The notes under the pieces: model-generated
Told to the model about the DNA's origin: nothing
Seen by the model: the letters and a program-made list of their open reading frames with translations, nothing else
Database searches by the model: none
Part shown: positions 4,988-33,756 of the stretch, piece after piece
Layout of the letters: every line of letters begins with the position of its first letter
Numbering within the stretch: the stretch's first letter is position 1
NCBI GenBank assembly: GCA_021769425.1
Contig: JAETSX010000026.1
Coordinates: 1-53,808, forward strand
Source of the DNA: Eubacterium sp.
Lineage (GTDB): Bacteria > Bacillota > Clostridia > Lachnospirales > Lachnospiraceae
DNA length: 53,808 bases
Direction of reading: 5' to 3'
Position numbers and translations under genes: made by a program

Positions 4988-5160
4988 AATTCTGTCCTCC
5001 TCATGTTCCTGCTCATCCGCTTTTATTTTAAAACAATCTCATGGTAAAGTCAAACTCTGAACGCAAAACAAAGCGGGCAAACCCACCCCAACTCCCCTGT
5101 CCCATCAATCTTGCCATACACTTTAGCGCCTCACAGCAACAAGGTCCTTCCTATGAAATA

Positions 5161-5199
5161 AAAAAACGCCGACATCAATCCCATTGCCGGCGTTTTTTT
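5161..5199 (-). terminator. Bidirectional-type terminator ending the ABC/efflux operon
   Basis: An 11-bp stem (AAAAAACGCCG with CGGCGTTTTTT) has T-runs on both strands. It lies about 30 nt past the stop of the MacB-like gene, and no plus-strand gene precedes it. The remaining 4988-5160 shows nothing recognisable. Confidence 0.85.
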
Positions 5200-5229
5200 C
5201 AGTTAACATAAAAGCGGCTTCCCGCTAAA

Positions 5230-6348
5230 TCAATCAAAATCTTCCAAGCATTTTCCCCTCCTTCCTCCTGCTATCCACAGCGCCGCCAGCATCTCCGCCA
5301 GCAGACTATACCCCGCCGCCTTCCAAAAATCATCCATCCATTCAGAGTCCGGCATTCCTTTGGAAATCCGAATCAAAAGCTTCATTCCCTCTGTCTTTTC
5401 CTTCCACAATTTAGCCCAAAATGAAAAATCAGACCATAAAGTTGGAATATAATCATCCGGAATCCGTACCCACTTTCCCAAAAGGAATATCAGCAGCGCC
5501 GCCAAAGCCAGAGAAAGCATTGCCGTCACAGCTTTTTGCCGCAGCTTCTCCTGAACCCGGAACTGGCGATACAGAAACATCCAGATAAAAATGCACACAG
5601 TTACCGGAATCGCCAGAAGCAGAGACCCGCTGATTCCCCGTAACAGTTCTGTATCCAAAACCTGCGCACTCAGGCTGTACTGGCCGGCCCATATCATCTG
5701 CAGATCCCGGATGGAGCTTTCCTTAGGCTTTTGTACCGTGATTCTCTGCAGCACAGAATCCGCAGAGGACTTTTCTTCCCCCTCTGCGGATGCTCTCTGG
5801 TTCTTGTGAGAAAGGCTGCCCGCCTGAAAAGCCACAACTCTCTCCTCTGCCGGAATTACATTTCTGATCATATAATTGTTTCCCTGGCAGAGAATTTCTT
5901 TTCCGATTACCTGGCTGCTGCCAAACAGCTCCCATGCCGTTTCTTCGTCTATCAGACATCCCTGTTCATCCTCCTGTATCGGAGTTCTGCAATCCGCAAA
6001 CAGAATTTCCGGATTGCCGCAGAGAATCACTGCATCTGCACTGGCAGTTCTGGACAGTTCTTCATTGGAAACCGTAATATTCTCTTTCTGTCCCCAGATA
6101 CAGAAATTCAAAGGCGTGCCCTGTTCCTTCTGTCCCTGTTTCCAAAGTTCGGCTGTCTTTTGGTTCTGTTCCGATATTTTCAATGCTTCTTCCACAGAAA
6201 TTGGCTCTTCCAAATAAAACAGCACACTGTCCTTGGCCCAGAGCATACTGCACCAGGCAACGGAAGCCAGATAAAACAGAAGGAATCCAAGCCCGCCCAC
6301 GCCTGCCAGAAACAGATATTTTCTATATTTTTTTATGCCTGTTTTCAT
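5230..6348 (-). CDS. MacB/FtsX-like ABC permease-type membrane protein (no ATPase domain)
   Basis: From the chosen start the protein has 372 residues: membrane segment about 8-32, a long extracytoplasmic domain (about 40-240) resembling the MacB periplasmic core domain (NNYMIRNVIPAEERVVAFQ region), then three more hydrophobic segments (about 243-262, 275-295, 348-365). This TM, outer domain, three TM order is that of FtsX/MacB exporters, but it is short and has no nucleotide-binding domain. The in-frame ATG at 6573 is rejected: it overlaps the upstream gene and reads an 80-bp tandem duplication in two different frames. The ATG at 6348 sits directly after the second duplicate and has only a weak AAGAGAG site. 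It is the last gene of the five-gene operon and a natural partner for the adjacent adaptor protein. Confidence 0.65.
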   Translation of the reverse strand: MKTGIKKYRKYLFLAGVGGLGFLLFYLASVAWCSMLWAKDSVLFYLEEPISVEEALKISEQNQKTAELWKQGQKEQGTPLNFCIWGQKENITVSNEELSRTASADAVILCGNPEILFADCRTPIQEDEQGCLIDEETAWELFGSSQVIGKEILCQGNNYMIRNVIPAEERVVAFQAGSLSHKNQRASAEGEEKSSADSVLQRITVQKPKESSIRDLQMIWAGQYSLSAQVLDTELLRGISGSLLLAIPVTVCIFIWMFLYRQFRVQEKLRQKAVTAMLSLALAALLIFLLGKWVRIPDDYIPTLWSDFSFWAKLWKEKTEGMKLLIRISKGMPDSEWMDDFWKAAGYSLLAEMLAALWIAGGRRGKCLEDFD

Positions 6349-6349
6349 G

Positions 6350-6509
6350 CTCTCTTCTTTCCCAGCCCGTTCTTCCATCCCGTCCGAAACCAGAATTTCC
6401 AACGGAACTAAAAAACGGCTGCTGTCTGTCTCTCTTCTTTCCCAGCCCGTTCTTCCATCCCGTCCGAAACCAGAATTTCCAACAAAACTAAAAAACGGCT
6501 GCTGTTTGT
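6350..6509 (-). repeat. 80-bp tandem duplication in the leader of the MacB-like gene
   Basis: Two copies, 6350-6429 and 6430-6509, differ at only a few bases (GGAAC versus AAAAC, and one C/T). They fill most of the 193-nt gap between the adaptor gene and the MacB-like gene and include the presumed ribosome-binding region. Since 80 is not a multiple of 3, the copies cannot encode the same peptide in one frame, which argues they are untranslated. Confidence 0.85.
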
Positions 6510-6541
6510 TTAAATTGTTTTTCCGCAATTCATCTGCTATC

Positions 6542-8314
6542 TCATTCTTCCATCTTCCTGACGCGGCTTCCATCTCCGATGCTTCTGCTGGAATTGCTGA
6601 TAATCTCCTGTTCTGAGGTCAAAATCCCGTCTTCCAGCGCTGCATTGGCGCTGTTCTTATCCAGAACTTTTACTTCATAGCGTTTGGCAGCCAATTCTTT
6701 TCCCATGACGCCCTGCTCTTCCTCCATCACCAGCACATAACATCCATTCTGCTCCTCATGAAGAGCCTGAACCGGAATGACAGTGGAATAATTCTCTGAC
6801 TTCTGAACAATTTCAATCTCTGCCCGTGTGCCTGTCTCCAATCTCCCATCCGGCATATCAATTACAATATCCAGCAATGTGGGATCTTCCTCATTTTCTG
6901 TCACACTGGTTACGGTATAATCGGTGATTTTTTCTTTGCTTCCGGACACGCTGATGTTAACCTGGCATCCTTTGCTGACATATTTCTCATTGGATTTATC
7001 CACCGAAGCTCTCAGACGGCTTCCCTGAGAGGTATCCGCCAGACGCACAGCCGTTCCCTCTGCGGTAAAATCTCCGGTGGTAATAGCAATATTTGTTACA
7101 ACTCCCTGAACCGGCGCCGTAATCCGGCCTTCTGCATTTTTCAAATCCTGCAGTTTACCCAGAGCCAGTTCCTGCTGCTGGCTGGTAATCTCATTCTGCC
7201 TGGATGTGCTGTCTGACGCTGCCGGCGCATTTGCATCTTCCATGGCTCTTGCCGCTGTCTTTACATTTTCTGTCCGGGCGGACACTGCCGCTTCATAGGC
7301 TGCTTTTGCCTCTGCCGCCGCCTGTTCCAGCCGGACCTTCTCCGCCTCCCAGGTTGAACGTTCCTCTTCTGCGCTCTGCCCATTCCCATTTGATTCTGGC
7401 TGGCTGTTTCCTTCCTCCTGCCCATTCTCATTTGATTCTGGCTGGCTGCTTCCTTCCTCCTGCCCATTCTCATTTGATTCTGGCTGGCTGTTTTCTTCCT
7501 TCCGCTCATTTTCGTTCTGGCCGGAAGGGCTGTTTCCCGCTCCTTTCCGGCTTTCCTCCTGAGTGAGACGGCTGTTTTCCTCCCTTTTCTCATCTTCTTC
7601 CTGAGTAAAATGCCTGCCTTCTCCTGCACTCTGTTCACTTTCATCTCTCTGAGGGTCAGCCGCAGCGCCTTCTCCTGCATTTTGTTCACTTTCATCTTCC
7701 TGAGGATCAGCCGCAGCGCCTTCTCCGCCATTTTCTGCTGCGTCACCTTTTCCGCCTGTTTGCTGTTTTGTCCTGCTTCCCCCGGCGTCTGCAGCCGGCG
7801 GGCCCGCTGCCAGAAAGTTCTGCAATTCCTGCTCTGCCTGATCCCAGGCCGCTTTTGCCTGAGCCACCGATGTGTCCCCGTCAGCTACCGCCTGATTATA
7901 ATCCTCAGCGGCCCTGGTCTTTGCCCGTTCCCGGTTCTGCTGCTCCACATCCCGGGAACTTCTGGCATCCTGATTCTGCAGCTTTGACTTCTCCAATTCC
8001 TGTTCCGCCGCCAGGATCTGTTCTTCCAGTTCCTCCATATCAACGGTAAACAACACATCTCCAGCTTCCACCGACTGGCCTTCCCGGACAAAAATTTCCT
8101 TCACCCGCTGTCCGCTCTCTGTATATACTGCAATTTCTTTTCCGGCTTCCACCCTGCCGCTTCCGTTTACCTTGTGGTCAATGGTTCCGGTGGTAATCCT
8201 TACCGTTTCCACCCTTGCCATGGACGCCCCGCTTAAGGCTCTTGACAAAATGGTAAACAGCAGCATAACGGCCAGAAAACCGCTGAATATTCCAAAAACT
8301 TTTTTCCTGTCCAT
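6542..8314 (-). CDS. HlyD/MacA-type efflux adaptor with repetitive insert
   Basis: A 590-residue membrane fusion protein. It has a signal anchor (about 7-27), a first lipoyl half near 45-95 (KVNGSGRVEAGKEIAVY, then VREGQSVEAGDVLF), a long coiled-coil hairpin (about 95-375), a second lipoyl half (ITAPVQGVVTNIAI) and beta-barrel domains to about 520. The coiled coil is interrupted by a low-complexity acidic insert of about 140 residues made of two repeat arrays. Adaptors of this family join an inner-membrane MacB-type transporter; here the MacB-like gene follows directly. It lies 23 nt after the permease gene, hence in the operon. The insert is unusual for the family and may be a flexible, wall-spanning stretch. 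Confidence 0.88.
   Translation of the reverse strand: MDRKKVFGIFSGFLAVMLLFTILSRALSGASMARVETVRITTGTIDHKVNGSGRVEAGKEIAVYTESGQRVKEIFVREGQSVEAGDVLFTVDMEELEEQILAAEQELEKSKLQNQDARSSRDVEQQNRERAKTRAAEDYNQAVADGDTSVAQAKAAWDQAEQELQNFLAAGPPAADAGGSRTKQQTGGKGDAAENGGEGAAADPQEDESEQNAGEGAAADPQRDESEQSAGEGRHFTQEEDEKREENSRLTQEESRKGAGNSPSGQNENERKEENSQPESNENGQEEGSSQPESNENGQEEGNSQPESNGNGQSAEEERSTWEAEKVRLEQAAAEAKAAYEAAVSARTENVKTAARAMEDANAPAASDSTSRQNEITSQQQELALGKLQDLKNAEGRITAPVQGVVTNIAITTGDFTAEGTAVRLADTSQGSRLRASVDKSNEKYVSKGCQVNISVSGSKEKITDYTVTSVTENEEDPTLLDIVIDMPDGRLETGTRAEIEIVQKSENYSTVIPVQALHEEQNGCYVLVMEEEQGVMGKELAAKRYEVKVLDKNSANAALEDGILTSEQEIISNSSRSIGDGSRVRKMEE
7379..7504 (-). repeat. Three in-frame 42-bp repeats inside the adaptor gene
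   Basis: Units 7379-7420, 7421-7462 and 7463-7504 encode the 14-residue repeat ESNENGQEEGSSQP with single changes. A degenerate fourth copy follows. Confidence 0.9.
7617..7719 (-). repeat. Two in-frame 51-bp repeats inside the adaptor gene
   Basis: Two copies encode the 17-residue repeat AAADPQEDESEQNAGEG and its variant AAADPQRDESEQSAGEG. Both keep the reading frame and the acidic Glu/Gln-rich character. Confidence 0.8.
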
Positions 8315-8337
8315 TCGTCTGTTCCTTTCTCGGCTGC

Positions 8338-9342
8338 TTACTCTTTTACTGCGCCTGCCATAATTCCCTGTTCCAGATAATCCTGCCCGCCTAAAAATAC
8401 CATCAGCGCCGGAAAAAACGTAACTACTGAAGCCGCAAAGGCCATGCCGGACTGATTCACGGATGTAATATCCGGCAGAAAAACAGATAAGGGAAACAGG
8501 CTTTTCTCTTTCAGAAATGTCAAAGGCTGTTCAATCAGGCTCCAGTATTCCAAAAATCCCAGAACCATAGCCGCAATAACTCCAGAGGAACCAATGGGCA
8601 ATGCAAGATAGAGGAAAATCTGCCACTCCCGCGCCCCGTCCAGTCTTGCCGATTCCAGCAGACTGTCCGGTATCTCCGTAAAAAAACGATAGATGATAAA
8701 TACCGGAAAGGTGGAGAATATCCCCGGCAGGATAATTCCCCACAGATTATCTGTCAAAGCCAGCCGGTCCAGCGCCAGATAATCTGAAAGCATCAATACC
8801 TGAAAAGGCAGAAGCATTAATATCATATAAATCAGAAAAAATCCTCTTTTCCAGGGAAATTCATATTTGGCAAACCCCCATGCCGCCCCGGTTCCCACCA
8901 CAAGCTGCCCAGCCAGAACGCCGAAGGTGATTTTTATGGAGTTCCAGAACATTACGAAAAATTCCGGAGAATCCAGAAAAACTTCCACGTAATGGCGCAG
9001 AGTGGGAAAGCCAGGCAGCAGCGGAAAATCTGCGTACCCCTGTTTTCCTGAAATCACTGCTCCAAGGCAGGCTCCCAGTTCATCTTTTCCCATAAAAGAA
9101 CCGGATATCAGGCAAAACACCGGATACAAAGCTGCAGACGCCAATAAAGTTAATATGCCCCAGAGAATCGCTTTTCCCATATGAACTGTTTTCAGCTTGC
9201 CGGCTATCTTACGAAATATCAGGTTTTCCAGCCAGTCTTCCTCTCCTGTCTCCCATTCTTCCAGAGCACACTCCTCAAGCTCCCTTTTGGGACTCTGTAT
9301 TTTCCATTCGGATATTTTTTCTTCCATTTTCTTTCTCAACAT
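8338..9342 (-). CDS. CUT1-type ABC permease, MalG-like subunit
   Basis: A 334-residue inner-membrane permease of the binding-protein-dependent sugar transporter family. Six membrane segments follow an unusual charged cytosolic extension of about 55 residues. The conserved EAA loop that docks the ATPase is intact (ESARLDGAREWQIFLYLALP, about residues 221-240). It lies 8 nt downstream of its MalF-like partner, so the two form one heterodimer. No ATPase gene is present in the operon, so a shared MsmK-type ATPase encoded elsewhere is the likely energy source. Confidence 0.88.
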   Translation of the reverse strand: MLRKKMEEKISEWKIQSPKRELEECALEEWETGEEDWLENLIFRKIAGKLKTVHMGKAILWGILTLLASAALYPVFCLISGSFMGKDELGACLGAVISGKQGYADFPLLPGFPTLRHYVEVFLDSPEFFVMFWNSIKITFGVLAGQLVVGTGAAWGFAKYEFPWKRGFFLIYMILMLLPFQVLMLSDYLALDRLALTDNLWGIILPGIFSTFPVFIIYRFFTEIPDSLLESARLDGAREWQIFLYLALPIGSSGVIAAMVLGFLEYWSLIEQPLTFLKEKSLFPLSVFLPDITSVNQSGMAFAASVVTFFPALMVFLGGQDYLEQGIMAGAVKE

Positions 9343-9350
9343 CCTGCCAC

Positions 9351-10229
9351 CTAATACTCTTTCCCGCTGTCCCAGGCTCTCTGTAACAGTAAAATCAGCC
9401 CCAGCAAGATTACGCTTTCCGCCACCGCAGCAGCAGCCATTTTATCAAAGGAAAATGATCGGAACCAGTTGTTAAACAAATGCTGCATCATATAAATGCT
9501 TTCATGAGGATAATCCCCTGCAACCAGATAGGACTCCCGAAATACCTTAAAGGAATTCAGAAAGGACAATACAGTAATTGTATACAGGGAAGGTTTTAAA
9601 TTCGGCAGCGTGATTTTCCAAAAACACTGCCATTCCCCCGCCCCGTCCACTTTCGCCGCTTCATAAATATTTTCTGAAATTCCTGCAAGTCCCGCCATCC
9701 ACAGTACAATATCATACCCGAGATTTTTCCAGATGTAGCTGACCACCAGTATCCAAAAGGCGCTGGAGGTGTTCATCCAGTCTTTTCCTGCCGCTCCCAG
9801 ATTGGAAAGCCAGTGATTCAAAAGCCCCTGGGAATGAAACAAAAGCCGCCACACCAACGCAACAGAAACTGCCGGCAGCGCCATCGGCATCAGAAATGCG
9901 CTTTTGATAAAACTGCCGTATTTACTCCGATATAAAATCACTGCGCATGCCAGCGCCAGAATAATCAGCAGCGGAATGCAGAATACCGTAAAACGCAGTG
10001 TGTTTTTCACGGCCAGCAAAAATGCGGTATTCTCTGTAATGGTGCGGTAATTCGCCAATCCAACGAAGCGGTTGTCTACCGCCCCCAAAAAGGAGCGGCG
10101 GACAACATCTGCATAGGGCAGAAGATAAAATACCATCACCCCCAGAAAGCTGGGCAGTATCCACAGGAATCCCTGCCACTTTTTACGATCCCAGGCGCCT
10201 TTTGAAAATTTTTTCACTGTCCCATGCAT
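9351..10229 (-). CDS. CUT1-type ABC permease, MalF-like subunit
   Basis: A 292-residue permease with six membrane segments and the EAA loop EAAKVDGAGEWQCFWKITLP (about 189-208). It starts with the family-typical WILPSFLGVMVFYLLPY segment. It sits 15 nt after the lipoprotein gene and 8 nt before the MalG-like gene. Substrate is unknown; sugar or glycoside uptake is the family norm, but the attached solute-binding protein is atypical. Confidence 0.88.
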   Translation of the reverse strand: MHGTVKKFSKGAWDRKKWQGFLWILPSFLGVMVFYLLPYADVVRRSFLGAVDNRFVGLANYRTITENTAFLLAVKNTLRFTVFCIPLLIILALACAVILYRSKYGSFIKSAFLMPMALPAVSVALVWRLLFHSQGLLNHWLSNLGAAGKDWMNTSSAFWILVVSYIWKNLGYDIVLWMAGLAGISENIYEAAKVDGAGEWQCFWKITLPNLKPSLYTITVLSFLNSFKVFRESYLVAGDYPHESIYMMQHLFNNWFRSFSFDKMAAAAVAESVILLGLILLLQRAWDSGKEY

Positions 10230-10244
10230 CTGCTTTCCCTTTCC

Positions 10245-12596
10245 TTATTCTGCCAGATAAATATTTACCTTCTGCATAATGGCGTCCGTTCCTTCTTCCG
10301 GGGACAACTCCCCTTTCAGAACTTTTGCTCCCTGTTCCACTACAGCCTCTTTGATCACATCATCCTGCAATGCCGGAGTTGTCAGTGATTCTGCCAAATC
10401 TGTAAGCTTCTGGATTTCTTCCTCCGGCGTGGGAGTCATTGCATAATCCAGCATTTCATCCATATCCCCTCCGCCCGCTACCCCTACCAGACTTTCTTTG
10501 CCAGCGTATTCATGACCGTCGATCACGCTTTGAAAAGATTCCTTTTCCACTGGAAATCCACCAAACTGGGATATTTTCTGAGCCTCCGGAGAAAACAGGT
10601 ATCTGACAAATTCTTCCGCGGTCTCCGGCTGGGCCGCTTTACTGCTGATTCCAAGTATCATGGCAGGCACAAAAACATTCTCCGCCTGCCCCGGCATCAG
10701 GCCGTAGTCTCCCCCCTCCAGCTTACTGTTTACCGCATTCATCATGCCGTAATCCATCCGTCCAAATAATCCTGTATTTACCTTAATTTTTCCAAATGCC
10801 AGATCAAAATCTCCCCAGCTTAAAGATACTTTCTGAAGTTCATTGACCGCTCCGTTCTGGCTGACAGACTGGTATACGGTCTCATCCAGCGCACTGCTGT
10901 CATATTCTCCATAAGCATTCTTAAGTTTTGATAAAAATTCTGTTATCTTTCCTGCATCCAGCGTTTTATCTTCCTTCTGCCATGCCGCGCCGCAGCTATA
11001 CCAAAATTTCTCAATCAGCGATTCCGGATCGGTATTGGCTAAAATTCCCTGTTTGGCAGTGAACGCATCAAAATCCTCTCCCGGCGTATAGTACGCGCTG
11101 CTTCCCTGCGCCGCTGGAATCATAAATCTTGCCGGAACTGCGCAGAGCTGTCCCTGAGCGTCCTGGTAAGCAGTCAGAATATTTTCAAAATAACCGCTCT
11201 TATCTTCCAATACCGACGACATATCTTTTAAAATTCCTTTTTCGATATAAGTATTAACCGGCATACCGTCCAGGAGTATCAAATCCGGTCCCTTTCCTGC
11301 CATAATTTCTGTGGTCAGGGTTTTCAGGGCATCAGAAACCGTTGTGCCGTTTTCCTCTGACAATGCTGCCTGATAATTGACATATACATCCGTATGGGCT
11401 TTCTGGAAGCTGCTGACAGCCTGACGCAGTTCCCTGCTATTATATAAAGAATACACCTTCAGCTCTTTATCCGGTTTGGCAGGAGTATCTGCAGACCAGG
11501 TATATTTTAACAGCGCCATACCGGCTCCCGCTCCGGTATTCAAATCATTCGCCGCCACCAGAAGATTCTGCTCATCCAGCATCGTCAAAGCTGCAGGATA
11601 AAAGGCCGGAGCGCCAAGGGAATTCATAGCGCCGTCAATCAACTGTTCCATGACGCTGCCGCCGAATTTATAGTGGAACAAGCCTTTTTGGGTGAGATAA
11701 TAAATGTTTTCCCCTGCATCCAGGCTGTCCACCGCATTAAAAAAACCACTTTCTGCCACGCTTTGCTGCAATGCATCCTCTGCCTGCTGCTCCCCTGTTT
11801 CTGTGTCATACACCAGAGCCTCCGTGCTTGTCACCACGAGCATCTTTTTCCCTGCTGCAAATACCTGGTGAGTATCTTCCACGCCGCTGAAATCGTAGGT
11901 CTGCTTCACACTTCCGTCTGCGGCGCTGATCTGGAAAATCTTATCCGTCATATCCGTTACCAGAATCTGGTCATTGCCCAGAAAACTAATATTTGTAACC
12001 AAATTTTTCACATCTGAAGCATTCAGGCCCTTGTCTTCCACACTGCCGGTGCTTTCTCCTGCTTCATCATCAGCGCCCTGCTCTGCCGCCGGAAGTTCAA
12101 ACGGAACTGCGCCTGCGGTTCCCTCTTTGCTTACCAAACATAAAATCGGTTTGATTCCGCCGTCCGCAATCTGATTATAAACCCATACAGACTGTCCGTC
12201 GGATGAAAGAGCCGCATAATCAATATAGCCGTTCCCTGCATCCTGCAATTCCTCAGGGGCGTCAAAAGCCTTCTCCCAATTTACCCCGGAATCCTTGGAA
12301 TCCCAGACCGTTTCTGTGCCGTCATCCGCATTTTTCCCTATAATCCGAATGGTTCCGTCATCCAGCTTCCTCATATCGTAAATATTGCCAAACACAATGG
12401 GCAGCGTCACGTCCTCCTCCAAAAAACGCCCCATGGCCTGTTCCCCGCCGCCTTCCTCACTGTTTCCTTCTGTATGGCTTCCTCCTGCATTTCCGACTGC
12501 GCCATTGTCTTTCCCGCCGCAGCCGGCAAGGCTTCCAAGAATCATTGTAAATGATAACAAGATCCCCGCTGCACGTTTTAATCTTCCATATTTCAT
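10245..12596 (-). CDS. Lipoprotein: Asp-box propeller-like domain fused to an extracellular solute-binding domain
   Basis: A 783-residue exported lipoprotein. Signal peptide 1-25 ends in the lipobox LAGC with Cys26, followed by a Gly/Glu-rich linker to about 55. Residues 60-375 look like a beta-propeller: short repeated beta-rich modules, one Asp-box (S100-K-D102-S-G104-V-N-W107) and SSDGQSVWVY-type blades. Residues about 378-783 form a family 1 solute-binding domain (ELKVYSLYNSRELRQAVSSF, later GPDLILLDG). Normal CUT1 binding proteins are about 400-450 residues, so the N-terminal half is an added domain. AAGGAGGTAG lies 7 nt before the ATG. It is the first gene of the operon, divergent from the two-component system. 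Confidence 0.85.
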   Translation of the reverse strand: MKYGRLKRAAGILLSFTMILGSLAGCGGKDNGAVGNAGGSHTEGNSEEGGGEQAMGRFLEEDVTLPIVFGNIYDMRKLDDGTIRIIGKNADDGTETVWDSKDSGVNWEKAFDAPEELQDAGNGYIDYAALSSDGQSVWVYNQIADGGIKPILCLVSKEGTAGAVPFELPAAEQGADDEAGESTGSVEDKGLNASDVKNLVTNISFLGNDQILVTDMTDKIFQISAADGSVKQTYDFSGVEDTHQVFAAGKKMLVVTSTEALVYDTETGEQQAEDALQQSVAESGFFNAVDSLDAGENIYYLTQKGLFHYKFGGSVMEQLIDGAMNSLGAPAFYPAALTMLDEQNLLVAANDLNTGAGAGMALLKYTWSADTPAKPDKELKVYSLYNSRELRQAVSSFQKAHTDVYVNYQAALSEENGTTVSDALKTLTTEIMAGKGPDLILLDGMPVNTYIEKGILKDMSSVLEDKSGYFENILTAYQDAQGQLCAVPARFMIPAAQGSSAYYTPGEDFDAFTAKQGILANTDPESLIEKFWYSCGAAWQKEDKTLDAGKITEFLSKLKNAYGEYDSSALDETVYQSVSQNGAVNELQKVSLSWGDFDLAFGKIKVNTGLFGRMDYGMMNAVNSKLEGGDYGLMPGQAENVFVPAMILGISSKAAQPETAEEFVRYLFSPEAQKISQFGGFPVEKESFQSVIDGHEYAGKESLVGVAGGGDMDEMLDYAMTPTPEEEIQKLTDLAESLTTPALQDDVIKEAVVEQGAKVLKGELSPEEGTDAIMQKVNIYLAE

Positions 12597-12666
12597 TTTT
12601 CTACCTCCTTGCTGTCATCCTGATTTGGAATCTGGAAACAGGATATCACAGAAACCTCTAATCTTC

Positions 12667-12707
12667 CTCTAAACAACCCAGAAATTTTTAGAGATTATTT
12701 AGAGATT
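12667..12707. promoter_or_regulatory. Candidate response-regulator boxes between the operon and the two-component system
   Basis: Two direct copies of TTTAGAGATT lie at 12687-12696 and 12698-12707, start to start 11 bp, the spacing expected for tandem OmpR/PhoB-type binding. A third, inverted box (CTCTAAA) is at 12667-12673 toward the lipoprotein gene. The boxes sit 49 nt before the regulator's start codon, just upstream of a TA-rich -10-like stretch (12715-12730). Autoregulation and control of the divergent operon are inferred. Confidence 0.55.
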
Positions 12708-12755
12708 TTTGTGGTATATTTATTTTATAACTTTCCATTTCAAAAGGAGCACAAA

Positions 12756-13439
12756 ATGCGTATACTAATTATAGAAGACGACAAGTCCCTGGCAGAAACC
12801 CTCCGTTTCCAACTGGAACGCAGCCATTTCGAAACGGACGTATGCCACGACGGCGAAGAAGGGCTGCACTTTATTGAGCAGCAGTCCCACGACCTGATTT
12901 TGCTTGACCGGATGCTGCCCGTCCTGGACGGTATTTCGGTTTTAAAAATCACCCGTGAGAAAAACATTTCCACTCCCATCATTTTCGTCACCGCCCTGGG
13001 CTCACTCAATGACAAGATTACGGGACTAGACTGCGGGGCAGATGATTATTTGGTGAAACCCTTTGATTTTGAAGAGCTGCTTGCCAGAATCCGGTGCATT
13101 TTAAGGCGGCCGCCAAAATGGGAAGGCAGCAAACCACTGGAATTGGGTGACATTTCCTATGACACTGACCAGAAAAAGCTGTGCTGCAAAGACGGTTCCT
13201 GTTCCCTTTCTGCCAGAGAAGGGGATTTGCTGGAATTTTTCTTAAGAAATCCGGGACAAACAATCCCCCGCGCTTCTCTGTTAGCCAAAGTCTGGGGACC
13301 GGATGCAGAAGTGGAGGACGGCAATCTGGACAATTATGTTTATTTTCTGCGCCGCAGACTCAAAAGCGTCCAAAGCTCCATACAAGTGAAAACCATTCGG
13401 GGAGTCGGCTACCGGCTGGAGATTTCCCACTCCCCATAA
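12756..13439 (+). CDS. OmpR/PhoB-family response regulator
   Basis: A 227-residue DNA-binding response regulator. The receiver domain (1-115) has acidic pocket residues Glu7/Asp8/Asp9, phospho-acceptor Asp51 in LLDRMLP, Thr in FVTAL, and Lys in VKPFDF. The winged-helix output domain (about 125-222) ends with the typical IRGVGYRL. The start at 12756 is chosen because AAGGAG is 7 nt upstream and the protein then begins MRILIIEDD; the GTG at 12711 lies in the promoter. It pairs with the histidine kinase 52 nt downstream and likely controls the divergent operon. Confidence 0.93.
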   Translation: MRILIIEDDKSLAETLRFQLERSHFETDVCHDGEEGLHFIEQQSHDLILLDRMLPVLDGISVLKITREKNISTPIIFVTALGSLNDKITGLDCGADDYLVKPFDFEELLARIRCILRRPPKWEGSKPLELGDISYDTDQKKLCCKDGSCSLSAREGDLLEFFLRNPGQTIPRASLLAKVWGPDAEVEDGNLDNYVYFLRRRLKSVQSSIQVKTIRGVGYRLEISHSP

Positions 13440-13491
13440 CCCCCAGGCAGCGGCCTGAAACTTTCAATATCCATCCCGCCGGAGGTATCCG

Positions 13492-14793
13492 ATGTTTCAA
13501 AAACTACACATACAGCTAACCTTGTTCTGCACTTTAATCTGCGGCGCGATTCTCGTTTTTATGTCTCTGATTTGCCTGTCCGTTTCCGAAAGGGAATCCA
13601 GAGAACGGAATTTTGCCGACTTTCAAATTAATGTTAATATGCTGGTAAACCACCTGGAAAGCCAGACTGTCATTTCTTATGCCTGGATCAGCCAATTCTG
13701 CACCGACACCCATTTTGAACTGGATATTCAGGATAATGGCTCCAGACTGGTATTTGATACTTTAAGCCCGGGTTCTCTGGATGAAGAACATTTTAACCAG
13801 GTGAGGCAAATTGCTGCGGCAGATTATGGTATCCTGGAAGAATCTGTCACAGCAAATTCTGTCCTTTCCATCCACGAGGAATTTGAACTGGCTGTCAGCG
13901 GAACAACCTACTATGGCGCAATGGTTCTGATCCCCAAGCATAGCGGCGTCCTGAACATTGCAGCGCTTTATTCCCTGACAGAGTTAAACAAAAGGATTCT
14001 GTTTCAGCGTTTTCTGTTTGCCGGAGCAGACATTTTCGGTATCCTTCTTCTGGGTATATTTTTCTGGTTTTTTACCTGGCGCATGATTCAGCCTTTGGCT
14101 GTCAGCCGCCAGAAACAGGCAGAATTTGTAGCAGCCGCTTCCCACGAACTCCGCTCTCCCTTAACGGTCATTTTATCCTGCCTGTCAGCGATGAAACAGG
14201 CTTCCCCAGCGGAAGCGGCGCATTTTTCAGAAACGATAGCACACGAAGGGCAGCGTATGAGCCGACTGATTGATGATATGCTGACCCTTTCTGGCACAGA
14301 CAGCTCCCATTTTGCCATCCACAAGAAACCGGCGGAACTGGACACGCTGCTGCTGTCTGCCTATGAAAAATTTGAACCGCTGGCGCGGAAAAAAAGTATT
14401 TCGCTGCATATATCTTTACCAGAAGAATTGGTACAGCCCTGCCTTTGTGACAGAGAACGCATGGAACAGGTATTTGCAATCCTTTTAGACAACGCCGTCA
14501 GCTACACGCCCATGAATGGAAGTATTTCCCTCTCTTTAAAAACTTCATCGGACAAGCTGACGTTTCGTATTGCAGACAATGGAATTGGCATTCCGGATGA
14601 GGAAAAAGAAGCTGTTTTTGAACGTTTCTACAGATGTGATAAATCCCATAAAGATAAGTCCCATTTTGGACTGGGGCTTTGCATTGCCAGAGAAATTATT
14701 CAAATGCACCGGGGAAAACTGTGGATTGAGGATACCCCCGGAGGCGGCGCCACTTTTGTGATAGCGCTGAAAAAGCATCCCCACACCCTTTAA
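13492..14793 (+). CDS. Sensor histidine kinase
   Basis: A 433-residue membrane kinase. Two membrane segments (about 8-30 and 175-196) flank an extracytoplasmic sensor of about 140 residues. The HisKA box ASHELRSPL places the phospho-His at 218. The N box (LLDNAVSYTP), G1 box (IADNGIGIPDE) and G2 box (HFGLGLCIAREI) are all present. GGAGG lies 6 nt before the ATG. No HAMP domain is evident between TM2 and HisKA. The ligand is unknown; the linked lipoprotein/permease/adaptor operon is the likely target. Confidence 0.93.
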   Translation: MFQKLHIQLTLFCTLICGAILVFMSLICLSVSERESRERNFADFQINVNMLVNHLESQTVISYAWISQFCTDTHFELDIQDNGSRLVFDTLSPGSLDEEHFNQVRQIAAADYGILEESVTANSVLSIHEEFELAVSGTTYYGAMVLIPKHSGVLNIAALYSLTELNKRILFQRFLFAGADIFGILLLGIFFWFFTWRMIQPLAVSRQKQAEFVAAASHELRSPLTVILSCLSAMKQASPAEAAHFSETIAHEGQRMSRLIDDMLTLSGTDSSHFAIHKKPAELDTLLLSAYEKFEPLARKKSISLHISLPEELVQPCLCDRERMEQVFAILLDNAVSYTPMNGSISLSLKTSSDKLTFRIADNGIGIPDEEKEAVFERFYRCDKSHKDKSHFGLGLCIAREIIQMHRGKLWIEDTPGGGATFVIALKKHPHTL

Positions 14794-14904: not shown

Positions 14905-15012
14905 ATGAAAGAACAAAGGGGCTGTCCGGTAGAAACACCGAAACAATCAGCTGAATCCGCCAACTTTCCGTACGTCTCTACCCCAACAGCTCCAGCATCT
15001 CTTCTTTTGTAA
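14905..15012 (+). other. Possible 35-codon ORF after the histidine kinase
   Basis: An ATG 5 nt after GGGAGG opens 35 codons (MKEQRGCPVETPKQ at the start) that end inside the antisense 3' end of the SNF2 gene. I recognise no family. The surrounding 14794-14977 holds only a weak hairpin (TTTGTTC with GAACAAA, 14797-14819) that might end the kinase transcript. Confidence 0.2.
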
Positions 15013-18000
15013 ATTTCACCCCTTCGAACCCTTCGTGTCCCAATAACTGCTCTGCCAATTCGCTTTTCTTTTCCTGCAGTCTCAGGATTTTTTCTTCAAC
15101 AGTGCTTTTGGCAATCAGCTTGTACACGGTCACAGGATTTTTCTGCCCAATCCTGTGGGCCCGGTCTGTGGCCTGGTTCTGCACCGCTACGTTCCACCAT
15201 GGATCATAGTGGATAACAATATCCGCAGCAGTCAGGTTCAGTCCGGTGCCCCCTGCTTTCAGGGAAATGCAAAACACCGGAGCTTCTCCTTGCTGGAAAG
15301 AATCTACCAGTTCTGCCCGCCGCTCTTTGGGAGTCGCTCCCGTCAGCGTCAGGAACGGAATGTTTTCTTTCTGCATCCTCTCCTGCAGGATGGAAAGCAT
15401 GGAGGTAAACTGGGAAAATAGTAGTATTTTGTGCCCGCCGTCTATAGCATTCTTTATCAGATCCATGCACATCAGCAATTTGGCTGACTCTCCCTGATAA
15501 TTCTGATACACCAGCGACGGGTCACAGCAAAGCTGGCGCAGTCTGGTCAGCTCCGCTAATATCTGTATTTTCCCGGAGGCAAATTCCTCCTCCGTCTGCC
15601 CGTCCAGCATTAGTTTCATACGCTGAACATGGGCCGCGTAAAGCTTCTCCTGCGCTTCCTCCATCCGGGCAAATACTGCTTCTTCCAGCTTGGCGGGTAA
15701 ATCTTTCAGCACGTCTTTTTTCAGCCGCCGCAGGACAAAGGGACGGATCATTTTCCGTAGGTGCCCTCTTTTTTCCTGATCCTGGGCTGTGACCACGGGA
15801 ATCTCTATTTCATCCCGAAAACGGCTGTAAGTGTATAAAAATCCCGGCATCAGATAATCAAAAATACTCCACAGCTCACTGAGCCTGTTTTCGATGGGCG
15901 TTCCGGTCAGAGCCGCCTTAAACCCCGCCCGGATATTTTTCACCGCTTTTGCCGCCCTTGTATTGTGGTTTTTAATATACTGTGCCTCGTCAATGATTTC
16001 ATGCCGAAAGCTGTATCCCTCATAAAATTCCTCATCTCTGCGCAGCAAATCATAAGAGGTAATCAGGATATCCCGCTTTTCTGCAGAATCAATGATTTCT
16101 TTCCGTTCGGGGGCTGTTCCTGTAACAGTCACTGCATGCATTCCGGGTGCGAATTTCTCGATTTCGCTTTTCCAGTTATACACCAGAGACGCCGGACAGA
16201 CTATCAGTGCAAATTTTTCCGTTGTCTGACCGTCCGTCCTGCATTCCTGCAGGCTATTTCTCAACTGAGACGCATCGCTCCGTTTCCCGCTGTCCAACCG
16301 GCCGTTGTCTCCCTGACCTGATTTTTCCTGCTCCGACAGCAAAAATGCAATCACCTGCAAGGTTTTTCCCAGCCCCATATCATCTGCCAGAATCCCGCCG
16401 AATCCATTGGCATGTAAGGTTTTCAGCCACAGAAATCCCTGTTTCTGGTACTCACGCATTACCTTTTCCAGAGATTTCGGGACCTCAAAATCATTGTCCT
16501 CCACCGTTTTCATGTTCCGAACCAGCGCTCTGAACTTCCTGTCCTTTGCTGCATGAAAACGGTTCTGATCTTTTAATTCTCCATCCAGGTATAAGGCCCG
16601 GTACTTTGGAAGCGAAATACTGCCCTGGTTCCACTGGCTGGCAGGAACCATAATCCCTTCCTGAATTCTGGAGAGGACGGCCAGCCCGTCTTCTTCCATA
16701 CTCAGGAAATCCCCGCTTTTGAGTCGGAAAAACTTCCGTTTCCGCTGATAGGAAGAAAGGATCTCTATCAATTCCGAAAGGGGCATATCCTCGCTTTCCA
16801 AGGTCAGCTCCAGCAGTTCCCCCTTTAAAGACACCCCCACGGAAACAGAGGGTGATGGGTTCACCTGAATGGATTTCAAGGCATCGCTGACGAAGATATT
16901 TCCAACTCTGGCCAGTTCATCTATCCCCTCGGTCAGCAATGCATATAGTTTCTCATCATCCCCCTCAAGAACCATCTGTTTTTTCTGGAAATCCAGATTC
17001 TGAAACCAGATGCGCACCCGTTCCCGCTGCTTTAATTCCGCCAGCTCATCACGGTTCTCGATCATACGGGGCTTGTCAAAAATATTGTATTTCAGTTCTT
17101 CATAGCGCACATACATTTGGCAGGTTACCGTCTGCTTATCCGGCGCATCCAGGTAAATTTCATACTCCGGCTCCGGCGGCAGATATTGTTTCTCCTGAAA
17201 CTCATACCGCCTGATTTGATAGTGCCGCTCCAGCACCGGCAGCAGCTCCCGGCAGAATCCAGGCAGTTCCCCCTGAGACACAAAGCATTCACGACATTTA
17301 TATTCGCTCATGTACTCCCAAAAAGGACGGATTTCCCGCGCCTGCTCCATGGGTATCCGGTAAATCATGCGCTCTTTCCACAGATATCCATACCGGCTGC
17401 CGAAGGTATACAACACTTCTTCTTGTTCCAGAGCTGCCCCGTCTTCCTGCCCACGGATAGACAGCAGCGGCTGATACGGCTCGTCGGAAACACGGCACAT
17501 CTGCCAGGAAGCATAATTTGTTTCTACCTGAAATTCCTCCGTTCCCACAGCCTGAAAAAATTCATCCATATTCCCGCTGTGGATGTGGACATACCGGTTA
17601 TCCTGCTTATAATAATAGTTCACTGTCTGCCTGTTTCTGCTGCGGTCTTCGGCCGTCAATACAAGAAACTCCGCCAAGGCCCTGCCTCTTTCCGTAAATA
17701 CTTCCGGAATATGATAAAATTCCAGGTCCTTCCCATAGGAAACCAGGTCGCCGCGCCGCATGGCATTGGCAAAGGTCATGATATTTTTCAGCACATATTT
17801 CCGCCTGCCCCCGATTTTAAATTCGGCCCGGGGCTGTCCGTAGCTGACAGACAACAGAGGAACGATGTCTATGGTTCCTTTTAATTCCGCCTGGTGAAAA
17901 GCCAGATGTTCTTTCTCTTTGTACTGGCGGATCAGGCGGGACAATCCGTAACTGCTGCTGCGTCCCGGCGCAATGCCTTTGCTGGCAGAAGAACCGGTGG

Positions 18001-18055
18001 ACAGAACTTTTCCATTTCGCTTTTGTGTATCATTTTCTGGTATTTTTCTATCCAT
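14978..18055 (-). CDS. SNF2-family DNA-dependent ATPase/helicase-like protein
   Basis: A 1025-residue bacterial SNF2 protein that probably translocates on duplex DNA and remodels protein-DNA complexes. The N-terminal half (about 60-500) corresponds to the SNF2-associated region with a zinc-finger-like CRECFVSQGELPGFC segment. The ATPase core begins near 530: Walker A DDMGLGKT with Lys564, motif II DEAQ starting at Asp689, a TGTPIENR motif, then the C-terminal RecA-like lobe with SLKAGGTGLNL and DRAHRIGQ. GGAGA lies 7 nt before the ATG. It follows glgD by about 500 nt of repeats and seems to be its own unit. No partner nuclease or methylase is adjacent, so a defence role cannot be argued. Confidence 0.92.
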   Translation of the reverse strand: MDRKIPENDTQKRNGKVLSTGSSASKGIAPGRSSSYGLSRLIRQYKEKEHLAFHQAELKGTIDIVPLLSVSYGQPRAEFKIGGRRKYVLKNIMTFANAMRRGDLVSYGKDLEFYHIPEVFTERGRALAEFLVLTAEDRSRNRQTVNYYYKQDNRYVHIHSGNMDEFFQAVGTEEFQVETNYASWQMCRVSDEPYQPLLSIRGQEDGAALEQEEVLYTFGSRYGYLWKERMIYRIPMEQAREIRPFWEYMSEYKCRECFVSQGELPGFCRELLPVLERHYQIRRYEFQEKQYLPPEPEYEIYLDAPDKQTVTCQMYVRYEELKYNIFDKPRMIENRDELAELKQRERVRIWFQNLDFQKKQMVLEGDDEKLYALLTEGIDELARVGNIFVSDALKSIQVNPSPSVSVGVSLKGELLELTLESEDMPLSELIEILSSYQRKRKFFRLKSGDFLSMEEDGLAVLSRIQEGIMVPASQWNQGSISLPKYRALYLDGELKDQNRFHAAKDRKFRALVRNMKTVEDNDFEVPKSLEKVMREYQKQGFLWLKTLHANGFGGILADDMGLGKTLQVIAFLLSEQEKSGQGDNGRLDSGKRSDASQLRNSLQECRTDGQTTEKFALIVCPASLVYNWKSEIEKFAPGMHAVTVTGTAPERKEIIDSAEKRDILITSYDLLRRDEEFYEGYSFRHEIIDEAQYIKNHNTRAAKAVKNIRAGFKAALTGTPIENRLSELWSIFDYLMPGFLYTYSRFRDEIEIPVVTAQDQEKRGHLRKMIRPFVLRRLKKDVLKDLPAKLEEAVFARMEEAQEKLYAAHVQRMKLMLDGQTEEEFASGKIQILAELTRLRQLCCDPSLVYQNYQGESAKLLMCMDLIKNAIDGGHKILLFSQFTSMLSILQERMQKENIPFLTLTGATPKERRAELVDSFQQGEAPVFCISLKAGGTGLNLTAADIVIHYDPWWNVAVQNQATDRAHRIGQKNPVTVYKLIAKSTVEEKILRLQEKKSELAEQLLGHEGFEGVKFTKEEMLELLG

Positions 18056-18120: not shown

Positions 18121-18560
18121 CCAGAAGGGTGCCTCACAGCTTTCTGCGCTGGGGGTGCTGGAAGAACCATCAGGGCTCCTCACAGCCTTCTACCTTAATG
18201 AAAGTTCTTATGTTTTGGGCTGGGTCCCTCCTCATGGTAAGCATCAGGGCTCCTTACAGCTTTCTGCACTGGGGTGCTGGAAGAACCATCAGGGCTCCTC
18301 CCAGCCTTCTACTTTACGGATACTCTTATGTTTTGGGCTGGGTCCCTCCTCATGGTAAGCATCAGGGCTCCTTACAGCTTTCTGCGCTGGGGGTGCTGGA
18401 AGAACCATCAGGGCTCCTCCCAGCCTTCTACTTTACGGATACTCTTATGTTTTGGGCTGGGTCCCTCCTCATGGTAAGCATCAGGACTCCTCCCAGCCTT
18501 CTACTTTACGGATACTCTTATGTTTTGGGCTGGGTCCCTCCTCATGGTAAACCTCATGGT
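18121..18560. repeat. About 120-bp tandem repeat array between glgD and the SNF2 gene
   Basis: Roughly three and a half units with a 118-120-bp period. The segment CTTTCTGC(G/A)CTGGGG recurs at about 18141, 18261 and 18379; TGTTTTGGGCTGGGTCCCTC recurs four times. Each unit is itself built from two related halves, both containing CATCAGGGCTCCT. A last half-unit lacks the first half. The array fills almost the entire 508-nt gap. A plus-strand frame is open through it, but its repetitive peptide, lack of a ribosome site and overlap with both genes argue against translation. Confidence 0.9.
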
Positions 18561-18563
18561 AAA

Positions 18564-19709
18564 CTAAACTACTTCTTTCTTTCTTACGAAGAAGGGTTTT
18601 GTATCGGCGCCTTTGATTTCCTTGCCCTCTGAAATCTTTACCTTTTTATCGGTGATGACATATTCTGCATCTACGCCGGCTTCAACTATGGTATCCTGCA
18701 TCAGAATGGAGTTTTTCACCTTTGCACCCTTGCCGATTTTCACTCCGCGGAACAGGATGCAGTTTTCGATTTCGCCTTCGATAACGCAGCCGTCAGCTAC
18801 CATTACGTTCTTAGCAGAAGAACCGTTGACATAACGGGTGGGGTTATCATCGCGGATCTTGGTGTAAATCGGATTTTTGCCGAAGAGCTCTTCCAGATTT
18901 TCATCCTCTAACAGCCTCATATTCTCGTCGAAATACTCTTTCAGGCTGCCAATGCGGGCTACGTAACCTTTATATTCATAAGCATTTACTTTCAGTTCAT
19001 TCAGCTGAGGCATTAAAATATCACGTTCCAGATATAAGCCGCCTGCTTTAAATGCTTCATTTACCAAATCAATCAGGTGTTCTCTTTCGAATACATACAC
19101 ATTCATGGAGAAATTCTGTATGCCCGACTCCTGAGGATTGATATGTATCCTCTTCACACGGTTCCCATCCAAATCAAGGGTGTAGTAATTTCCTTTATTT
19201 AAGTCTTCCGACATTCTAATGCTTCGCGGAAGTTCCTCTTTTGTATAAGCAATTGTGGCGTCCGCCCCGCTTTCAATATGTGCATCCAGCAATGCCTTAA
19301 AGTCAAAATTAAACGCAATATTCGTATCTGACATTACCACATACTTTTCTTTCTGGGCTTTCAGGAATCCCAGAATACTGCCAAGCATTCCAACCCGGCC
19401 GGTATATATTTCCATGTTTTTCTGGGCATAAGGCGGGAAAATATTTAATCCGCCGTTCTTACGCGACAAATCCCATTCACGTCCGGAACCCAAATGATCC
19501 AACAATGAAAAATAGTTTTCACGGACTAATACGGTAATATTGTCAATTCCGCAGTTGGCCATACTGGAAAGCACAAAATCAATCATGCGGTAACGGCCTG
19601 CAAAAGGAATAGAAGCCATCAGGCGTTCGCTGGTCAGTTCAGGTACAAGTTTATCATAAGCATTGGGGAAAATAATACCCAGTGCATTGGTGTTGCTGGT
19701 ATTCATCAT
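18564..19709 (-). CDS. glgD: GlgD, regulatory-type subunit of ADP-glucose pyrophosphorylase
   Basis: A 381-residue paralogue of GlgC. It has a nucleotidyltransferase domain (about 1-250) and a C-terminal left-handed helix of hexapeptide repeats (about 285-375). The N-terminal nucleotide loop is altered ([28 protein letters not shown] instead of the Gly-rich GGQGSRL of GlgC), as is usual for the non-catalytic clostridial GlgD that boosts GlgC activity. Its start overlaps the glgC stop by 4 nt (ATGA), so it is translationally coupled and forms a heteromer for glycogen synthesis. Confidence 0.93.
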
Positions 19710-33467: not shown

Positions 33468-33547
33468 GAAAAACTTTGCTTATTTAATAAATTTGTTTGC
33501 TTATTTGTTTGCTTATTTGCCCGATTTTTACAAATTTTCTCTATTCC

Positions 33548-33756
33548 TTTGCTTATTTTTTATCTCTTTGCTTATTTTTTATCTCTTTGCTTATTTTTTA
33601 TCTCTTTTCCTATTTTTTATCTCTTTGCTTATTTTTTATTTCCTTGCTTATCTTTTCTTTCCTTGCTTATTTTTTCTTTCTTTGTCTATTTTTTCTTTCT
33701 TTGTCTATTTTTTCTTTCCTTGCTTACCTTCTCTTCCCTTGCTTATTTTTTTCTTC
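33548..33756. repeat. Eleven tandem 19-bp units (TTTGCTTATTTTTTATCTC type)
   Basis: Units begin at 33548 and then every 19 bp to 33738, with the left units nearly identical and the right ones drifting to TTTGTCTATTTTTTCTTTC. Related GCTTATTT motifs extend left to about 33450. One strand is almost purely pyrimidine. Since 19 is not a multiple of 3 and no unit has a stop, all three plus frames stay open; none has a ribosome site, so I do not call a gene. Apart from this array, a hairpin and the palindromic element, 33380-34088 holds nothing recognisable. Confidence 0.92.

What the first reader, a model, noticed from the sequence alone, without database searches (positions are those of the whole stretch)
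5230..14793. ATP-less hybrid of a sugar-type ABC importer and a MacAB-like efflux pair under a divergent two-component system
Five tightly spaced minus-strand genes encode a solute-binding lipoprotein, two CUT1 permeases with intact ATPase-docking EAA loops, an HlyD/MacA adaptor and a MacB/FtsX-like membrane protein. Neither the importer half nor the exporter half has an ATPase gene. A receptor-type TCS is divergent, with candidate boxes between. Importer and exporter parts in one operon suggest either a sensing module (a propeller/binding-protein receptor reporting to the membrane) or an uptake/export exchange at the envelope.
Basis: partly seen in the sequence, partly recalled or inferred. 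Interest (0 to 1): 0.75.

Follow-up and report, generated by a model that had tools for sequence, protein, structure and literature searches.

The report
Sugar-type importer with MacA-like collar
Some gut clostridia carry a conserved gene set that joins a sugar-type ABC importer to two cell-surface parts known from efflux pumps; it looks like one machine run by one shared ATPase, and its cargo is still unknown.

Summary
Five minus-strand genes encode a propeller-plus-binding-domain lipoprotein (SBP), two CUT1 permeases (P1, P2), a HlyD/MacA-type adaptor and a MacB-related membrane protein (FTSX), beside a divergent two-component system, with no ATPase gene. The set is conserved: in 67 FTSX-bearing loci (of 73 examined) the adaptor lies within two genes in 67, both permeases nearby in 64.

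The interpretation needs changing: one machine with one motor, not two half-transporters. P1/P2 keep their EAA loops. The genome has one MsmX-like ATPase, apart from any P1/P2-like gene, and three relatives carry a MalK-type ATPase gene right after P2. FTSX is not an energised exporter: Pfam's FtsX domain is found in 0 of 47, against 26 of 28 ordinary MacB-like proteins, and 9 of 41 lack the TM2-TM3 hairpin that carries MacB's coupling helix. The adaptor accompanies the permeases; FTSX can be missing.

Repeats at 11-bp spacing lie between the divergent genes in 30 of 44 loci, against 0.72 in shuffles.

Best reading: an adaptor-crowned, MsmX-powered importer induced by its own TCS. Substrate unknown; no recurrent catabolic gene is linked.

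The parts
10245..12596 (-). SBP: 783-aa lipoprotein, N-terminal propeller-like domain (about 55-370) plus C-terminal CUT1 solute-binding domain
   Evidence: SBP_bac_1 E=3.1e-11; AlphaFold2 model mean pLDDT 84.8 with repeated beta units at 57-368; Foldseek best hit CbpC 7x0o E=2.6e-17
9351..10229 (-). P1: MalF-type permease, EAA loop intact
   Evidence: BPD_transp_1 E=4.3e-18; loop A, D, G and P in 67 of 67 aligned sequences, window included
8338..9342 (-). P2: MalG-type permease, EAA loop intact (ESA variant here)
   Evidence: BPD_transp_1 E=1.7e-11; loop A, G and A in 66 of 66, D in 65
6542..8314 (-). HLYD: MacA/HlyD-type membrane-anchored adaptor with a long low-complexity insert in the hairpin region
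   Evidence: TIGR01730 97.7 bits over the 94.9 cut-off; hairpin region 102-481 aa across 63 proteins
5230..6348 (-). FTSX: MacB-derived membrane protein, extracytoplasmic core kept, ATPase-coupling domain lost; likely start ATG 6348
   Evidence: family profile hits YknZ ectodomain 5f9q E=1e-5; PF02687 in 0 of 47 members
6350..6509 (.). 80-bp tandem duplication between HLYD and FTSX
5160..5200 (-). hairpin plus T-run after FTSX, apparent terminator of the operon (approximate)
   Evidence: read by eye from the sequence; not scored
12656..12672 (-). pair TTAGAG-N5-TTAGAG facing the SBP operon, followed by a -10-like TGNTATNCT
12688..12704 (+). pair TTAGAG-N5-TTAGAG facing the TCS operon
12756..13439 (+). 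RR: OmpR/PhoB-family response regulator
   Evidence: start read
13492..14793 (+). HK: sensor kinase with two TM segments and an extracellular domain of very roughly 140 residues
   Evidence: TM segments read from the translation; two TM in most neighbouring kinases of relatives

Best explanation
The locus encodes one membrane machine. P1 and P2 form a type-I (CUT1) ABC importer channel, energised in trans by the genome's single MsmX/MsmK-type ATPase. The lipoprotein SBP captures a ligand, probably a glycan-like one, with its binding domain; its propeller-like domain is a second docking surface. The HlyD/MacA-type adaptor, with or without the MacB-derived ectodomain protein FTSX, forms an extracytoplasmic collar that couples the SBP to the channel or reaches through the wall. 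FTSX contributes its ectodomain, not an export cycle. The sensor kinase detects the ligand or the loaded complex, and its response regulator switches on both its own operon and the transporter operon through paired 11-bp repeats. Shown: gene content, linkage, EAA conservation, loss of FTSX coupling, the MalK-type gene in three relatives, the repeats. Inferred: direction of transport, ATPase partnership in this strain, physical collar, ligand class, regulator binding.
For: One unit: HLYD within two genes of FTSX in 67 of 67 loci, P1 and P2 in 64, SBP in 64 (6 of 73 loci without FTSX set aside). Of 98 adjacent P1-P2 pairs in 112 loci, 91 have HLYD; the 7 others are 5 at contig ends and 2 lying apart from the module. 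Order is permuted (HLYD-FTSX before P1-P2) in 5 loci without breaking the set. One motor: EAA loops; MalK-type ATPase gene after P2 in L144, L145, L156 (ABC_tran+OB_MalK+TOBE_2 tested in the first two); one OB_MalK protein in this genome, no P1/P2-like gene within the 12 kb around it, 467 bits to MsmX 6yir with D77, R104, E110, K154 kept. FTSX uncoupled; MacB's major coupling helix lies between TM2 and TM3 (PMC5985334 passages). Adaptor core, FTSX optional: HLYD 54, FTSX 41 of 62 named loci. Ligand class. Regulation.
Against: No recurrent sugar gene is linked: among 94 flanking genes no Pfam family occurs in more than 5; single GH10, GH31 and PTS genes are listed (25 of 115 families shown). 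Presence of an MsmK-type ATPase does not discriminate (26 of 27 SBP-bearing genomes, 109 of 123 others, p=0.31), and G001 (74% complete) has the module without one detected. L100 has SBP-P1-SBP with no P2 or HLYD. No complex was modelled; the FTSX structure job failed. HlyD-family proteins otherwise serve exporters (recalled).
Confidence: 0.5

Rival explanations
1. Envelope guard: the machine recognises and removes an envelope-active compound or signal (antimicrobial peptide, glycopeptide, muropeptide-like glycan) and the TCS induces it on exposure, in the style of Bce-type modules.
For: Self-contained cassette with a dedicated TCS and no recurrent catabolic genes; MacA/MacB-type parts occur in Gram-positive peptide-protection pumps (PMC5985334 passages); SBPs occur in tandem arrays.
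Against: Binding domain and permeases are of the oligosaccharide-importer type and the motor found in relatives is of MalK type; FTSX lacks coupling.
Confidence: 0.25
2. Sensor without net transport: SBP, permeases and adaptor act as a ligand-reading co-receptor for the kinase, ATP use serving to reset or report.
For: A TCS gene near the module in 58 of 67 FTSX loci; repeats facing both operons and no recurrent pathway genes.
Against: The strictly divergent pair is seen in 20 of 31 and 52 of 71 loci only, so the module persists with other arrangements; EAA conservation suggests real transport.
Confidence: 0.15
3. One reading: a sugar importer plus a working MacAB-like exporter, each borrowing an ATPase, doing uptake/export exchange.
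For: HLYD passes a membrane-fusion-protein cut-off and the FTSX profile matches the YknZ ectodomain.
Against: FtsX C-terminal domain found in 0 of 47 and TM2-TM3 missing in 9 of 41; where the run holds an ATPase it is one MalK-type gene.
Confidence: 0.06
4. Two independent units that happen to be neighbours.
For: FTSX is undetected in some loci, and in L032 and L053 the SBP and TCS are transposed relative to the permease-adaptor genes.
Against: 67 of 67 and 64 of 67 linkage, kept in three families and two gene orders; 91 of 98 P1-P2 pairs have HLYD, the rest being contig ends or pairs apart from the module.
Confidence: 0.02

Closest known systems
CUT1 oligosaccharide importers powered by MsmX/MsmK (e.g. 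MdxEFG, AraNPQ, YesOPQ of Bacillus subtilis)
   Same: SBP_bac_1 binding protein, two permeases with EAA loops, no ATPase gene beside them, one multitask ATPase elsewhere (passages of PMC7658222)
   Different: SBP carries an N-terminal propeller-like domain; HlyD-type adaptor and MacB-derived protein in the same gene run; OmpR-type TCS and no recurrent catabolic genes
MacAB / YknXYZ / Spr0693-0695 pumps
   Same: MacA-type adaptor beside a protein with a MacB_PCD-type ectodomain; FTSX profile hits YknZ ectodomain 5f9q
   Different: no LolD/MacB-type ATPase; FtsX C-terminal coupling domain lost; joined to CUT1 permeases
CbpC (7x0o) and the MsmK-type ATPase 7x0q (both from Clostridium thermocellum; for 7x0q recalled)
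   Same: CbpC is the best structural match of the SBP's C-terminal part; 7x0q is the best match of the genome's MsmK-type ATPase
   Different: CbpC (438-residue chain) is too short to hold the propeller-like domain
Bce-type TCS/ABC resistance modules (recalled)
   Same: dedicated TCS beside an ABC system with a large-ectodomain FtsX/MacB-type protein
   Different: importer-type permeases with a binding protein; kinase with an extracellular domain; FTSX uncoupled

Membership tests
CUT1 importer with trans ATPase (MsmX type) | SBP plus two permeases with EAA loops | tested here: met
CUT1 importer with trans ATPase (MsmX type) | separate MsmX/MalK-type ATPase in the genome | tested here: met
   one OB_MalK protein, no P1/P2-like gene in the 12 kb around it, 467 bits to MsmX with D77/R104/E110/K154 kept
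CUT1 importer with trans ATPase (MsmX type) | uptake of a carbohydrate | not testable with these tools
   SBP fold similarity only; no recurrent catabolic genes beside it
MacAB/YknXYZ-type efflux pump | MacA-type adaptor | tested here: met
   TIGR01730 over cut-off; MacA chain 9qgy_G at E=6.5e-4
MacAB/YknXYZ-type efflux pump | MacB-type permease with FtsX C-terminal domain and coupling helix | tested here: not met
   PF02687 in 0 of 47 against 26 of 28 controls; coupling-motif regex 0 of 47 against 15 of 29 controls; TM2-TM3 missing in 9 of 41 scorable
MacAB/YknXYZ-type efflux pump | own LolD/MacB-type ATPase | tested here: not met
   no ATPase-motif ORF in the downstream run of 62 of 62 named and 25 of 25 other loci; in three relatives the run's ATPase is MalK-like (domains scanned in two)
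Bce-type resistance module (definition recalled) | BceB-type permease with its ATPase, kinase without an extracellular sensor domain | tested here: not met
   no such ATPase in the run; two TM segments of the kinase with roughly 140 residues between, read

The most novel reading that the evidence does not exclude
A type-I ABC importer wearing a MacA-like collar: the HlyD adaptor, sometimes with a MacB-derived ectodomain stripped of its motor coupling, forms an extracytoplasmic tube or ring on MalFG-type permeases and hands large ligands from a propeller-bearing binding protein through the cell wall inward. Adaptors of the efflux world would thus also serve an inward, MsmX-driven transporter.
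Probability: 0.3. Interest if true: 0.82.

Novelty: new variant of a known kind. Interest (0 to 1): 0.62.

Why it matters
Membrane-fusion adaptors and MacB ectodomains are known as parts of exporters. A conserved, separately regulated unit in which they are joined to importer permeases with a single MalK-type motor, and in which the MacB part has lost its motor coupling, would extend what these parts can do. It is widespread in the window's family (SBP in 27 of 150 sampled genomes; FTSX in 56 of 397; window included in both), so its ligand, a glycan or an envelope-active compound, could bear on gut ecology. It also offers a clean system for asking whether a HlyD-type adaptor can work on an inward transporter.

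Tried and rejected
Rejected: (1) 'ATPase lost only here'. No ATPase-motif ORF stands in the downstream run of 62 of 62 named and 25 of 25 other loci with at least 6 kb; the MalK clade is nested in the P1/P2 tree (rooted with only two outgroup pairs, module node 0.84), which favours a later gain. (2) MsmK presence as a test: uninformative, p=0.31. (3) A substrate from neighbouring genes: 94 flanking genes of 200-899 aa (longer ones left out) show no recurrent pathway; of ten genes after the module (chosen from 37) one was GH10 and one a PTS EIIC, the others UvrD, glutamine synthetase, two DUF proteins, malic enzyme, UDP-galactopyranose mutase, TPR and one without a match. (4) Gene fusions of HLYD, FTSX or SBP with another family: none among hits over 40 bits in the 112 loci. 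(5) A wider regulon: one further site pair in the genome, at the level of the control. (6) Occurrence elsewhere: 3 of 391 besides the window in the class draw, none outside the class in the phylum draw of 398; these searches scored only about five candidates a genome, so the counts are lower bounds. (7) Papers: five term sets joining HlyD/adaptor with importer terms gave no hit; the library holds open-licence PMC papers only. (8) The propeller call rests on strand order and on WD40/sialidase chains whose single stretches were mostly not significant; the 50 Foldseek rows shown were all binding proteins or fusions with one.

ORF choice and ATPase labels in scripts rest on motifs and HMMs. FTSX absence means no HMM hit; L119 has an unassigned 234-aa ORF with four hydrophobic stretches in its place. 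The TM count is a hydropathy threshold (6 of 47 unscored). Control MacB-like proteins were the best-scoring loci (30 fetched, L211 gave no ORF, L220 dropped, 28 scanned). Promoter test: 44 of 62 regions, those of 80-400 bp.
Full report
What is there. The reported genes exist with the stated domains: SBP lipoprotein, two BPD permeases, an HlyD/RND_mfp adaptor, a weakly MacB-like membrane protein, and a divergent OmpR-type regulator and sensor kinase. The MacB-like ORF is over-extended at its start by an 80-bp tandem duplication; the likely protein is 5230-6348. A hairpin and T-run follow it (read).

Is it conserved? The SBP was found in 27 of 150 genomes of the same family at E<=1e-20, the window's included. 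I took 31 further loci from that search; with the window 32, of which 25 have at least 6 kb downstream. P1, P2 and HLYD were present in 22, all five genes in 19, none of the partners in 3, and no ATPase-motif ORF stood in the run in 25 of 25. A named-genome scan kept the best 80 of 274 loci. Of the 62 with at least 6 kb downstream, P1 was seen in 53, P2 in 54, HLYD in 54, FTSX in 41, an ATPase in none, and 8 had no partner in the downstream run (some, as L112 and L142, have partners on the other side). The strictly divergent TCS was seen in 20 of 31 and 52 of 71 loci with enough upstream sequence. Exceptions for P1+P2: L146 lies at a contig end, L032 was cut by the stretch I took, and in L166 P1 was not recognised. 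Counting the other way, 91 of 98 adjacent P1-P2 pairs in 112 loci have HLYD; of the 7 without, 5 are at contig ends and 2 lie apart from the module. Against the pattern, L100 has SBP-P1-SBP without P2 or HLYD. The set is one unit, HLYD belongs to its core, FTSX is optional.

Where? Mostly in the window's own family (56 of 397 genomes by FTSX, window included), three further genomes in two other families of the class, none outside the class in a draw of 398 from the phylum. Only four or five candidates per genome were scored in these draws. In one of the other families the order is SBP-SBP-HLYD-FTSX-P1-P2; the third family has the usual order.

The motor. EAA loops are conserved: P1 A, D, G and P in 67 of 67; P2 A, G, A in 66 of 66. 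Three genomes carry SBP - small ORF - HLYD - FTSX - P1 - P2 - ATPase. In two (L144, L145) the ATPase was scanned and is ABC_tran + OB_MalK + TOBE_2; in L156 it scores 712 bits with an HMM built from those two and the window genome's MsmK. L058 has a MalK-type gene upstream on the same strand that may belong to another unit. The MalK clade has support 1.0 and is nested among loci without an ATPase. The window's genome has a single OB_MalK protein, with no P1/P2-like gene in the 12 kb around it, 467 bits to MsmX 6yir, with D77, R104, E110 and K154 in place (read from the alignment); these are the residues targeted in PMC7658222 as part of a multitask signature (passages). The introduction of that paper, seen in the same passages, states that ATPase-less CUT1 operons served by one orphan ATPase occur in Bacillus subtilis and Streptococcus pneumoniae, so this feature alone is ordinary.

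The MacB-like protein. Its family profile hits the YknZ ectodomain 5f9q at 1e-5, and MacB_PCD is found in 31 of 47 members. The FtsX C-terminal domain is found in 0 of 47, against 26 of 28 MacB-like proteins taken from relatives by MacB_PCD; the 2 that fail are probably the 2 rows that match ABC_tran, that is, ORFs picked wrongly. The controls were the best-scoring MacB_PCD loci. A regex for the coupling motif is met by 0 of 47, and by 15 of 29 controls. The TM2-TM3 loop has mean consensus frequency 0.29, against 0.74 for the coupling region of the controls, while the extracytoplasmic core and the IPxDxIPxKWSDFSFW motif reach 0.51 and 0.62. By hydropathy 9 of 41 scorable members lack TM2-TM3. 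In MacB the major coupling helix lies between TM2 and TM3 and the TM3-TM4 loop is the 'shoulder' (PMC5985334, passages). So FTSX is a MacB-derived ectodomain protein that no longer fits an ATPase. Full-length FTSX matches in the 150-genome draw lie at or near the SBP places, with three apart (G136:C69, G046:C1:5388196, G147:C108): the first two proved to be the MalK-bearing units and the third ends at a contig end after HLYD.

The adaptor. Its lipoyl and barrel parts are conserved; the hairpin region varies from 102 to 481 aa across 63 proteins, against 212-386 for the rest. In the window it is low-complexity and built in part from 42- and 51-bp tandem repeats. A TolC-type tip contact is not expected (inference).

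The SBP. The AlphaFold2 model from 45 sequences has mean pLDDT 84.8 and pTM 0.82. The C-terminal half matches CbpC (Foldseek 2.6e-17) and other sugar-binding proteins. The N-terminal half is a run of repeated beta units, propeller-like by strand order only. The C-terminus ends in or near Y-[LIVM]-x-E in 107 of 128.

Regulation. In 44 intergenic regions of 80-400 bp (of 62), an exact 7-mer pair at 11-bp spacing occurs in 30, against a mean of 0.72 (maximum 2) in 50 mononucleotide shuffles; spacings 10, 12, 21, 22 give 2, 9, 2, 4, the 12-bp count also exceeding its shuffles (maximum 4). In all ten printed regions of the window and its nearest relatives (L063-L068, L070-L072) two pairs face the two operons; a -10-like TGNTATNCT follows the SBP-side pair in 9 of 10 (read). 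In the whole genome the pair pattern occurs three times, twice here. This fits a regulator dedicated to this locus and acting in both directions; binding itself is inferred.

Function. The neighbours give no recurrent pathway. I therefore commit to an adaptor-crowned importer (0.5) and keep the envelope-guard reading (0.25) and the sensor reading (0.15) as live rivals. Physical contact between the adaptor and the permeases is inferred from linkage only.

Noticed in passing
L066, L068, L074, L097, L117, L138, L140 and others: The SBP gene occurs in tandem arrays of two to four copies while the other module genes stay single, which suggests diversification of ligand capture.
   Followed up: partly
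window 10245-10260 (SBP C-terminus) and relatives: SBPs end in or near Y-[LIVM]-x-E in 107 of 128 cases; such a fixed C-terminus may be a contact site.
   Followed up: partly
L055, L056, L105, L124, L133, L136: Relatives of the SBP without P1/P2/HLYD beside them; L105, L124 and L136 keep a divergent TCS.
   Followed up: no
L100:5018-10963: SBP-P1-SBP without P2 or HLYD, perhaps a decayed or rearranged unit.
   Followed up: no
window 7376-7734: 42-, 84- and 51-bp tandem repeats inside the adaptor gene encode part of its low-complexity insert.
   Followed up: partly
window 18132-18550: 119-bp and 73-bp tandem repeats (3.1 and 2.0 copies) between the ORFs 14978-18055 and 18564-19709.
   Followed up: no
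window 33542-33751: AT-rich 19-bp repeat, 11 copies.
   Followed up: no
L144:2484-2999, L145:8190-8822, and the 155-aa ORF of L156: A small ORF lies between SBP and HLYD in the MalK-bearing clade; the L144 and L145 proteins have weak DUF5666-like hits.
   Followed up: no
L158:10620-13142: A GH10 xylanase-like gene follows the module in a same-genus genome.
   Followed up: no
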